The position numbers and the translations under genes are program-made. A stretch of DNA of 64,000 bases from Desulfovibrio sp. A2 (GTDB lineage Bacteria > Desulfobacterota > Desulfovibrionia > Desulfovibrionales > Desulfovibrionaceae): contig NZ_AGFG01000033.1 of NCBI RefSeq assembly GCF_000226255.1, forward strand, positions 56,545-120,544, in the 5' to 3' direction. Shown one piece after another: positions 60,726 to 64,000 of the stretch; position 1 is the first letter of the stretch; the number at the start of each line of letters is the position of its first letter. A model generated the notes under the pieces. It ran no database searches. It saw only the letters and a program-made list of their open reading frames with translations, and had not been told where the DNA came from.

Positions 60726-61148
60726 CTACCGGATGACCATCACGGGACACGACGCCATCTGAAGCACCCGGTGGGTGACGCTGCCCAGCAGCAGTCCTTC
60801 CAGTTCCGAGTGCCCGCGCGAGCCCATGATGATCAGGTCGCAGCGCTCGTAGTCGGCGGCGTCCACGATGGCCACCTCCACCTTGCCTTCCAGAACCCGG
60901 TCGGCAAAGGGCACGCCGCGCTCGCGCAGCAGTTGGCGGCAGGGTTCCAGCACTTCCTCGGCCTGGGCCACCAGCGAGTTGCGCGCCTGGTCGTAGGCCG
61001 CCTGCCCGAGAATGGGCGGGATGGACATGCGGCAGATGAGCAGCACCACTTCTGCGCCCACCAGCTTCGCGAAATCGGCGGCGTATTCCGCCGCGCGCTG
61101 CGAATAATCGGAACCGTCCACGGGAACGAGTATCTTGCGAATCTGCAT
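60726..61148 (-). CDS. Universal stress protein (UspA family)
   Basis: 140 residues from ATG 61148 (TGAGGTCG upstream). Single Usp domain: IRKILVPVDGSDYSQRAAEYAADFA at the start and GSRGHSELEGLLLGSVTHRVLQMASCPVMVI at the end, including the ATP-binding G-X2-G-X9-G-S pattern. ATP-binding Usp proteins support survival under stress or energy limitation. Transcribed alone; its stop codon coincides with the edge of repeat copy C. Confidence 0.93.
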   Translation of the reverse strand: MQIRKILVPVDGSDYSQRAAEYAADFAKLVGAEVVLLICRMSIPPILGQAAYDQARNSLVAQAEEVLEPCRQLLRERGVPFADRVLEGKVEVAIVDAADYERCDLIIMGSRGHSELEGLLLGSVTHRVLQMASCPVMVIR

Positions 61149-61346
61149 GGCGACCTCACGGATGAACGCTGCGAAGGGGCACGGACGCCGCGCGCTGCCA
61201 CGGTGCGCGGGAGTGCCACTATGCCCCCGGGGGGGCGGGCATGGCAAGGGGGCGCGGTGTTCCGGAACCGCCCAAGGCCCAGGAAAACCGGGCACGTGCG
61301 CACCCGGCCCGGCGTGCGGGGGCGTGTGGGGCGTACGGTCGGGGGG

Positions 61347-61880
61347 TTACCCTGCCAGCAGCCGGGCCAGCCGATCCGTCAGCGTCTGCACGTCATCCCC
61401 GGCGTCCAGCACCGCGTGGGCGCATTCCCGGTACAGGGAATCGCGCGCGGCCAGCACCTCGGCCACCTCGTCGGCAATGGGCCGCCCGGTCAGCGAGGGG
61501 CGCTGGGCGGCCTGCGGATCGCGCGCGAGGCGCGCGGCCAGAAGTTCCACGCTGCCGCACAGGTAGGCCACAAGGCCCCCTTCGCGCAGCATGCGCCGGT
61601 TATCCTCCGCCAGCACCATGCCGCCGCCGGTGGCCACTACCAGGCCGTCCCGGCCAAGGGTGGCGCGCAGGGCGTCGGACTCGCGCCGCCGGAATCCCTC
61701 CCAGCCTTCGCGGGCCACTATCTGCTCCACGGTCATGCCCGCCGTGGCGGTCACCGTGGCGTCGGTATCCTCGAAGCTCCACCCGGCGCGGGCGGCCAGG
61801 GCCTTGCCCACCGTGGTCTTGCCGCTGGCGCGCGGCCCCACCAGATATACCCGCCGCGTCTGCCGCGTATCGTCGTTCAT
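61347..61880 (-). CDS. aroK: Shikimate kinase
   Basis: 177 residues. Walker [16 protein letters not shown], shikimate-binding Asp in FEDTDATV, Arg in [14 protein letters not shown] loop [10 protein letters not shown], and the adenine lid Arg in [10 protein letters not shown]. Phosphorylates shikimate en route to chorismate, made by AroC encoded nearby. Divergent from the aminotransferase-hom operon across a 440-nt spacer. Confidence 0.93.
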
Positions 61881-62166
61881 GTATCCCCCGGCACCGTTCG
61901 GCCAAACAGTCTACATTCATCGCAGTCAGGCCATGTTCATCGCAGCTAGGCGTATTGACCCGCATTTCTTTTTTGCAGTACAAACCACCGACACCGCAAC
62001 CCACGGTAGCCTCGCCGCCTGTCAGAGTTGCCTGTCCGGATGATTCGTCCGGATACTTCGTCAGGGCTTACGCCCCGCGCACGACGTCCACCAGACGCCC
62101 GGCGCACCGGCACGCGGCGCACGCGCAATGTATACACGGCCATTCTCCACCACAAGAGTCATCGGC

Positions 62167-62253
62167 ATGTCCCACCTCGACCGGACCGCTACCATCGCCA
62201 CCACCGCCGCCGCTACCGCCGCGGCCGCCACCGCGGCAACCGCCGCCCGGTGA
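62167..62253 (+). CDS. Thr/Ala-rich leader peptide of the aminotransferase-hom operon
   Basis: 28-codon ORF: ATG at 62167, TGA at 62251, AAGAG ribosome site 8 nt upstream. The peptide begins [13 protein letters not shown] and is then almost only Ala and Thr, ending AAR. Composition: 7 Thr (all ACC), 13 Ala, 1 Ile. It resembles thrL-type leaders by design, not by sequence. A perfect terminator follows 22 nt after the stop codon. Its later GCC-GCC codons (62242-62247) can pair with the GGCGGC of the terminator's 5' arm (62278-62283), giving an antiterminator if the ribosome stalls at upstream Thr/Ala codons. Confidence 0.7.
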
Positions 62254-62275
62254 CGCAGGCTTGCGCCGTTGGTTC

Positions 62276-62304
62276 GAGGCGGCGCTGCCGCCTCTTTTTG
62301 TTTC
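62276..62304 (+). terminator. Attenuator terminator of the aminotransferase-hom operon
   Basis: GAGGCGGC-GCT-GCCGCCTC, 8-bp perfect stem, then TTTTTGTTTC. It ends 19 nt before the aminotransferase start. No plus-strand gene ends upstream within 3 kb, and the last one (59038) has its own terminator, so this must act on transcripts begun in the leader. A CGCA-GGCT-TGCG hairpin just upstream could be the pause structure. Confidence 0.8.
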
Positions 62305-62323
62305 AAACACGGAGAACCTCGCC

Positions 62324-63508
62324 ATGACCCAGTTTCCGCGCATGCACCGTCTGCCCCCCTATGTCTTCGCGACGGTGAACGAACTGAAGATGCAGCTGCG
62401 CCGCCAGAACGTGGACATCGTCGACCTTGGCATGGGCAACCCCGACATGCCCACCCCCCAGCACATCGTGGACAAGCTGGTGGAGGCATCATCCAAGGGC
62501 GTGAACCACCGCTACTCGGTGTCGCGCGGCATCCCCAACCTGCGCAAGGCCATCTGCGACTGGTACATGCGCCGCTTCGGCGTGTACCTTGATCCGGACA
62601 CCGAGGCCGTTGCCACCATGGGCGCCAAGGAAGGGCTTTCGCACCTGTCGCTGGCCATGCTCTCGCCCGGCGACGTGGTGTTCGCGCCGGACCCCACCTA
62701 CCCCATCCACACCTATGCCCCCATCATTGCCGGGGCCGACGTGCGGCGCATTCCCATCGGGCGCGGGCGCGACTTCTTCGAAGACCTGCTGGTGGCCACC
62801 CGCCAGACCTGGCCGCAGCCCAAGCTGCTGTTCATCAGCTACCCGCACAACCCCACCTGCGAGATAGCCGCGCCGGAATTCTTCCAGAAGGTCGTGGACT
62901 TCGCCAAGGAACACAAGATCTACGTCATCCACGACTTCGCCTACGCCGACCTTGCCTTCGACGGGCACATGCCCCCCAGCTTCATGCAGGCCGAAGGTGC
63001 AAAGGACGTGGGCGTGGAATTCTTCTCCATGTCCAAGAGCTACTCCATGGCCGGATGGCGCATGGGCTTCTGCGTGGGCAACCGCGACCTGGTCTACGCG
63101 CTTACCCGCATCAAGAGCTACCTTGATTACGGCCACTTCCAGCCCATCCAGATCGCGGCCACCGTGGCCCTGAACGGCCCGCAGGAATGCGTGACCGAAA
63201 TCGTGGATACCTACCGCAAGCGCCGCGACGTGCTCATCGAGGGCCTTGGCCGCGCGGGTTGGGACGTGCCGCCGCCCAAGGGCACCATGTTCGTGTGGGC
63301 GCAGATTCCCGAAGAGTTCCGGGCCATGGGGTCCGTGGAGTTCTCCAAACTGCTGCTCAAGGAAGGCCACGTGGCCGTTTCTCCGGGGCTTGGCTTTGGC
63401 GCGCACGGCGACGACCACGTGCGCTTCGCCCTCATCGAGAACGAACACCGTACCAAGCAGGCCATGAAGGGCATCAAGAAGGTGCTCTCCGGGAGGTCGT
63501 GTGGGTAG
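62324..63508 (+). CDS. Class I/II aminotransferase, AlaC-like
   Basis: 394 residues; CGGAG precedes the ATG by 9 nt. PLP-dependent fold type [36 protein letters not shown] (PLP-binding Asn), [13 protein letters not shown] (Asp, Tyr), catalytic Lys in [16 protein letters not shown] and Arg in [12 protein letters not shown]. The sequence resembles glutamate-pyruvate (AlaC) and LL-diaminopimelate-type aminotransferases. Alanine or aspartate-family products both fit the Ala/Thr-rich leader. It overlaps hom by 8 nt. Confidence 0.88.
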
Positions 63509-64000
63509 CGAAAGCGACAAGCCGGGCGGCAAGCCCCTGGTCATAGGCATGGCCGGTTTCGGCACCGTGGGCAGCGGCCTTGCCCGCGTGCTGGACGAGA
63601 ACCGCCAGTGGATCACCGAGCGCACCGGCCGCGAGATGGTCATCAAGACCATCCTGGTGCGCGACCTGGCCAAGCCGCGCGCCTGGCCCGTGCCTGAAAG
63701 CGCTACCCTGACAGCCGACCCGGCAGCCCTCACCGACGACCCGGAAATCGACGTGCTGGTGGAACTGATGGGCGGCATCACGGCCCCCCACGCCATCATC
63801 CAGCGCGCGCTGGAAGCGGGCAAGCACGTGGTCACCGCCAACAAGGCCCTGCTGGCCGAAGACGGCTACGACCTGTACCGCCTTGCCGAACAGAAGAACG
63901 TGGGCCTGCACCACGAGGCCAGCGTGGCCGGGGGCATCCCCATCGTCCAGACGCTGAAGGAAAGCCTTGCGGGCAACCGCATCGGCTCGCTGGTCGGCAT
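63501..64000 (+). CDS. hom: Homoserine dehydrogenase (3' end outside window)
   Basis: GTG start at 63501 with GGGAGG at 5 nt, overlapping the aminotransferase stop. The visible 166 residues hold the NAD(P)-binding site [66 protein letters not shown] and [24 protein letters not shown], all standard for Hom. It reduces aspartate semialdehyde to homoserine for Thr and Met. Its presence behind a Thr-rich leader supports end-product attenuation. Confidence 0.95.

What the first reader, a model, noticed from the sequence alone, without database searches (positions are those of the whole stretch)
62167..62304. Thr/Ala leader-peptide attenuator in front of an aminotransferase-homoserine dehydrogenase operon
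Seen: a 28-codon ORF with 7 ACC (Thr) and 13 Ala codons and an AAGAG ribosome site, then a perfect GAGGCGGC/GCCGCCTC terminator with a U-run ending 19 nt before the aminotransferase ATG. No upstream plus-strand gene exists for it to terminate. Known: gammaproteobacterial thr, ilv and his operons use such leaders. Inference: stalling at Thr/Ala codons frees late GCC-GCC codons to pair with the terminator 5' arm (GGCGGC). The coding repeats would thus double as the antiterminator, sensing both Thr (Hom product) and Ala (possible aminotransferase product). I know of no described Thr/Ala attenuator in Desulfovibrionales.
Basis: partly seen in the sequence, partly recalled or inferred. Interest (0 to 1): 0.88.

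Follow-up and report, generated by a model that had tools for sequence, protein, structure and literature searches.

The report
Threonine/alanine leader peptide before alaC-hom
In a sulfate-reducing bacterium, a tiny threonine- and alanine-rich gene followed by a transcription stop signal sits in front of genes for making threonine and probably alanine, and it probably works as a switch that lets those genes be read when the amino acid runs short.

Summary
A 28-codon ORF (62167-62253; 7 Thr, all ACC; 13 Ala), a 22-nt spacer and a perfect 8-bp terminator with a U-run precede an alaC-like aminotransferase-hom operon; the upstream gene points away. All 8 genomes held of the genus (Nitratidesulfovibrio) carry it. 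ORF, spacer and terminator vary in 4 of 135 columns, against 28 of 141 fourfold sites of the aminotransferase. None of 138 loci examined outside the genus has a comparable ORF. The family does use leader peptides: Val-rich leaders with terminators precede acetolactate synthase in 30 of 32 loci examined, the window's own genome included. Published genetics says that this Hom serves threonine alone. A Thr-responsive, possibly Thr/Ala-responsive, ribosome-mediated attenuator is the best reading. The RNA switch is the weak point: a folding index that separates stalled from finished ribosomes in E. coli thrL, trpL and 29 of 30 Val leaders is nearly flat here at the standard footprint (10.2 at Thr, 9.1 at the stop codon). 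New genus-level member of a known kind; Ala sensing unproven.

The parts
61955..61984 (+). candidate promoter TTGACC-18 nt-TACAAA; start of transcription then near 61991
   Evidence: by eye; TTGACC identical in all rows, last base of the second hexamer varies; not reported by the scan
62115..62166 (+). conserved block before the leader ORF, with a weak ribosome site AAGAG at 62154-62158
   Evidence: 4 of 55 columns variable over -212..-157; ribosome site strength
62167..62253 (+). leader ORF, 28 codons, 7 Thr and 13 Ala
   Evidence: 3 of 87 columns variable in 8 genomes
62254..62275 (+). spacer; its part 62255-62270 can pair with 62278-62291 as an alternative antiterminator
   Evidence: 0 of 22 columns variable; folding; not special against shuffles
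62276..62299 (+). intrinsic terminator (stem 62276-62283 / 62287-62294, U-run 62295-62299)
   Evidence: 1 of 26 columns variable, a T to C in the U-run of G085 and G112
62324..63508 (+). class I aminotransferase, alaC-like
   Evidence: PF00155; NCBIfam alanine transaminase 610.3 bits, cut-off 647 not reached
63501..64000 (+). homoserine dehydrogenase (hom), cut by the window's end
   Evidence: full-length copy in G038 499.8 bits, cut-off 205; window part 190.2

Best explanation
The region is the leader of the alaC-like aminotransferase-hom operon and acts as a ribosome-mediated transcription attenuator. Shown from sequence: Thr-rich leader ORF, spacer, intrinsic terminator, operon, and strong constraint on all of it within the genus. 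Inferred: transcription starts near 61991 and a ribosome translates the leader behind RNA polymerase. With plenty of charged tRNA-Thr (and perhaps tRNA-Ala) it reaches the stop codon, covers the late codons and the start of the spacer, and the terminator forms. When it stalls on Thr (or Ala) codons, free GCC codons or the spacer hold the terminator 5' arm and transcription reads through into the operon.
For: Composition and order of parts and rarity of such ORFs. Present in 8 of 8 genomes of the genus, always before this operon. ORF+spacer+terminator 4 of 135 columns variable against 28 of 141 fourfold sites; Thr/Ala third positions 1 of 20 in the leader against 10 of 34 in the aminotransferase (Fisher p 5.5e-6 and 0.03, rows not independent). 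No gap column in the leader, against 133 in the upstream UTR. Hom mutants of Miyazaki F are rescued by threonine alone (PMC5764234). Leader peptides with a clear switch in the same family, own genome included. Arm-freeing cost is high (6-13 kcal/mol) for ribosomes on the ORF. In G066, which has Thr25Ala, the equilibrium terminator probability falls to 0.53, 0.19 and 0.05 for ribosomes at codons 7, 8 and 9.
Against: The switch index is nearly flat: 10.2 at Thr, 9.8 at Ala, 9.1 at the stop at offset 13, while 29 of 30 Val leaders fall to 4.1 or less at the stop; it falls here to 4.6 and 4.1 only at offsets 15 and 16. In the window's sequence equilibrium folding keeps the terminator for ribosomes at codons 7, 12, 13 and 22. 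Spacer and codon order are not special against shuffles. Weak ribosome site. Nothing comparable outside the genus. No covariation, since too little varies. No expression data.
Confidence: 0.62

Rival explanations
1. Threonine-only attenuator: the Ala codons are GC-rich filler that supply pairing strands, and Ala is not sensed.
For: Hom serves threonine only (PMC5764234); the aminotransferase misses the alanine-transaminase cut-off; the own-genome Val leader also carries Ala (4 of its last 20 or so residues by eye are not Val).
Against: Ala is nearly twice as frequent as Thr, and codon 25 is Thr or Ala in different species, as if the two were equivalent; the folding model has its lowest terminator probabilities at Ala codons 18 and 19.
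Confidence: 0.45
2. The uORF and terminator form a general translation sensor (any slow or failed translation changes readthrough), not an amino-acid-specific one.
For: Flat switch index at offset 13; weak ribosome site; without any ribosome the terminator probability swings between 0.00 and 0.98 with the assumed transcript start.
Against: It leaves the Thr-rich composition before hom unexplained.
Confidence: 0.2
3. Chance: a low-complexity ACCGCC stretch read as an ORF, plus an unrelated terminator.
For: 98 of 348 genomes of the order have some DNA match, most of them to the ACC/GCC-rich part only; terminator-like sites in the region are as frequent as in shuffles.
Against: 3 of 87 variable columns and no gap in a repeat-like sequence, while the UTR before it has 33 of 91 variable columns and 133 gap columns; start, stop and frame kept in 8 of 8.
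Confidence: 0.05

Closest known systems
E. coli thrL, attenuator of the thr operon (NC_000913.3)
   Same: Thr-rich leader ORF, then an intrinsic terminator, before a homoserine dehydrogenase gene; the last leader codons can pair with the terminator 5' arm (sequence)
   Different: thrL has Thr and Ile and no run of Ala; its terminator arm is freed fully at the stop codon (13 to 0 kcal/mol), here hardly; the first gene here is an aminotransferase; no sequence relation seen (no Rfam match)
Val-rich leader plus terminator before acetolactate synthase in Desulfovibrionaceae (found here)
   Same: Same family and own genome, similar size (21-43 aa's list) and order of parts
   Different: Old (12 genera) and with a clear switch; the leader studied here is seen in one genus only
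Predicted trp and ilvB attenuators of GC-rich Actinobacteria (PMC1262725, passages)
   Same: Short ORF with pathway codons plus GC-rich terminator, predicted by comparison
   Different: Other amino acids and phylum; that text has no 'alanine' and reports that codon changes in one ilvB leader had no effect, a caution for this case

Membership tests
Ribosome-mediated (leader-peptide) transcription attenuator | Short translatable ORF before the first structural gene | tested here: met
   ribosome site weak
Ribosome-mediated (leader-peptide) transcription attenuator | Cluster of codons for an end product of the operon | tested here: met
   7 ACC Thr of 28 codons; Hom needed for Thr (PMC5764234). 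For Ala: inconclusive
Ribosome-mediated (leader-peptide) transcription attenuator | Intrinsic terminator between ORF and gene | tested here: met
Ribosome-mediated (leader-peptide) transcription attenuator | Alternative RNA structures chosen by ribosome position | tested here: inconclusive
   antiterminators exist but the index is nearly flat at offset 13
Ribosome-mediated (leader-peptide) transcription attenuator | Conserved before orthologous operons | tested here: inconclusive
   8 of 8 in the genus; none of 138 loci outside it
Ribosome-mediated (leader-peptide) transcription attenuator | Readthrough responds to the amino acid | not testable with these tools
   needs expression data
Rfam leader families (Thr leader and the like) | Match to a covariance model | tested here: not met
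   0 matches up to E = 1 in 61000-63000
Alanine transaminase AlaC (NF006033) | Score over the curated cut-off | tested here: not met
   610.3 bits against 647; LL-diaminopimelate aminotransferase 575.3 against 648
Homoserine dehydrogenase (NF004976) | Score over the curated cut-off, full-length copy | tested here: met
   499.8 against 205 in G038

The most novel reading that the evidence does not exclude
A two-amino-acid attenuator, born within one genus, that reads threonine and alanine supply together in one leader to control alanine transamination and homoserine formation, and in which the repeated GCC codons of the ORF themselves act as many interchangeable antiterminator strands instead of one dedicated segment.
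Probability: 0.25. Interest if true: 0.68.

Novelty: new member of a known kind. Interest (0 to 1): 0.45.

Why it matters
It would place a Thr (perhaps Thr/Ala) attenuator in Desulfovibrionales, on an operon whose homoserine is not used for methionine, so a threonine sensor makes sense. It is seen in one genus, beside an older acetolactate-synthase leader of the same family, and so may show how an attenuator is born. In the listings of ten searches of the open-licence library (one search listed 20 of 148) I saw no paper on leader-peptide attenuation in Desulfovibrio or on an alanine-sensing leader; most subscription papers are not in that library.

Tried and rejected
Rejected: the 41-codon version from 62128 (no ribosome site by eye; its ATG is lost in L056/G136). 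A terminator for an upstream gene (none on the plus strand). A known RNA family. The spacer antiterminator as a designed feature: 186 of 2000 shuffled and 203 of 2000 random genomic spacers give an equal or lower terminator probability; on the contrast at offset 15, 33 of 200 spacer shuffles reach the native value. Codon order as a designed feature: 122 of 200. Equilibrium folding as a test: it gives terminator probability 1.00 at every codon of E. coli thrL, so I changed to the arm-freeing cost after seeing that; the new index counts against this finding.

Led nowhere or limited: the leader scans (48: 42 loci around thrC, chorismate-binding, TPP-enzyme, hisG and HMGL-like genes in 5 genomes) flagged no credible leader at thrC, hisG or HMGL-like genes, but they also missed the genus's own Val leader, found by eye; hisG and one HMGL-like gene of G000 were looked at by eye, thrC was not. 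One search printed nothing (too strict). One search missed the genus's Val leaders; one search used looser rules and had no shuffle control. (promoter alignment) had a wrongly sliced G124 row and is not used. In one search, L062 was dropped (under 200 nt upstream); 33 of the other 138 loci outside the genus have some hairpin plus T-rich stretch; I looked at the upstream sequence of some of them. Some of the 138 are one contig fetched twice. One search scored at most 2 candidates in each genome.

Full report
What is there. Plus strand 62167-62253 encodes [28 protein letters not shown] (7 Thr, all ACC; 13 Ala). A 22-nt spacer, a perfect 8-bp GC-rich hairpin (62276-62294) and TTTTTGTTT follow, then a class I aminotransferase (62324-63508) that overlaps hom (63501 on). 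In G038 the next gene after hom, about 430 nt on, is of the apgM/proposed homoserine kinase type, below all its cut-offs. The divergent neighbour is AroL. In D. vulgaris Miyazaki F, DvMF_1410 is the shikimate kinase and DvMF_1412 homoserine dehydrogenase (PMC5764234, passages), so the aminotransferase is DvMF_1411 by position (inference; that tag is not in the text).

Is it more than chance? Such ORFs are rare: 1 of 515 in the window, itself, and 2 of 11,166 elsewhere. A DNA search of 348 genomes of the order with 62112-62323 found the whole element in 8 genomes, all of this genus (its 8 of 8); 90 others have partial matches, the longest over query 99-182 (G319), most inside the ACC/GCC-rich part (at most 2 candidates scored a genome). 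Named members are Nitratidesulfovibrio liaohensis and oxamicus. L001, L002, L019 and L056 agree in contig length or coordinates with G124, G112, G100 and G136, so I count 8 genomes, not the 11 rows.

Constraint. Over 8 genomes: far-upstream UTR 33 of 91 ungapped columns variable with 133 gap columns; block before the ORF 4 of 55; ORF 3 of 87; spacer 0 of 22; terminator 1 of 26; stretch just before the aminotransferase 2 of 22; aminotransferase fourfold sites 28 of 141 (first 278 codons). The ORF changes are Asp5Asn in G136, Thr25Ala in G066, G100 and G124, and one silent change in the last Ala codon. Fisher tests give 5.5e-6 for ORF+spacer+terminator against fourfold sites and 0.03 for Thr/Ala third positions (1 of 20 against 10 of 34); the rows are related, so these are guides. 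Too little varies to tell coding from RNA constraint.

Outside the genus, none of the 138 loci with at least 200 nt upstream has an ORF of this composition. Several relatives have a TTGACA-like stretch close to the gene instead (by eye).

Does the family use leader peptides? Yes, by the same kind of evidence. Before acetolactate synthase large subunit (968.3 bits, cut-off 870) a Val-rich leader plus terminator was found in 29 of the 30 best-matching loci (114 of 119 genomes had a match; only those 30 were examined) and in L217, but not in the paralogue L212: 30 of 32, in 12 genera. The window's own genome has MRRTAATALPNATGLQAPVFVAVVVRVVRRVAP. Before a trpE-type gene, the 3' end of a prephenate-dehydrogenase-like gene carries Trp-Trp-Trp, then a strong terminator, in G000, G085, G038 and G132.

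Mechanism tests. Equilibrium folding of the window's sequence (offset 13) gives terminator probability 1.00 with the ribosome at the stop codon, 0.57 to 0.11 at codons 16-19 and 0.53 to 0.34 at codons 24-26, but 0.98-1.00 at Thr codons 7, 12, 13 and 22 and 0.66 at 9. In G066 it is 0.53, 0.19, 0.05 and 0.34 at codons 7-10; G038, G085 and G136 look like the window (4 other genomes tried). But this measure says 1.00 at every codon of E. coli thrL, so it does not test attenuation. The cost of freeing the terminator 5' arm before its 3' arm is made does separate states: thrL about 10-13 at Thr codons 6-14 and 0.0 at the stop, trpL 8.4-9.3 at Trp and 0.0, Val leaders 6.0-14.1 on average and 0.7-4.1 at the stop in 29 of 30 (L266: 7.6). 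Here it is 10.2 (Thr), 9.8 (Ala) and 9.1 (stop) at offset 13, and 4.6, 4.1 and 3.0 at the stop for offsets 15, 16 and 17. So a stalled ribosome would hold the terminator back, but whether a finished one lets it form hangs on two nucleotides of footprint. The blocking strand is the ORF's own codons for ribosomes at codons 1-13 and 19-21, the spacer at 15-18 and 22-29.

Verdict. A real and conserved attenuator-like leader. Thr control is likely, Ala control open, the RNA switch not settled. New are its place in Desulfovibrionales, the Thr/Ala composition and the alaC-hom pairing; the principle is old. Papers: passages of PMC2965389 ('desulf' and 'threonine' do not occur), PMC5764234 and PMC1262725; others only as listings. 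What I say of gammaproteobacterial leaders beyond E. coli thrL and trpL is recalled.

Noticed in passing
L241 (G000), L242-L269, L217; own genome also L216 reverse complement 1188-1352: Val-rich leader peptide plus terminator before acetolactate synthase large subunit in 30 of 32 loci examined, 12 genera of the family, with a clear folding switch (arm-freeing cost 6-14 at Val/Leu/Ile codons, 4.1 or less at the stop in 29 of 30). Not seen in the listings of my paper searches.
   Followed up: partly
L201 (G000), L202 (G085), L203 (G038), L204 (G132), about 590-720 in the gene's orientation for L201: Trp-Trp-Trp close to the stop codon of a prephenate-dehydrogenase-like gene, then a strong terminator, then a trpE-type gene: looks like a trp attenuator whose control codons sit in the 3' end of the upstream gene.
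   Followed up: partly
window 62021-62080: Degenerate repeats of a TCCGGA-containing unit, with differing copy number between species, between the candidate promoter and the conserved block.
   Followed up: no
L053 and L078, within about 60 nt before the aminotransferase start: A strong hairpin followed by TTTTTT directly before the same aminotransferase in two deltaproteobacterial contigs, with no obvious leader ORF by eye.
   Followed up: no
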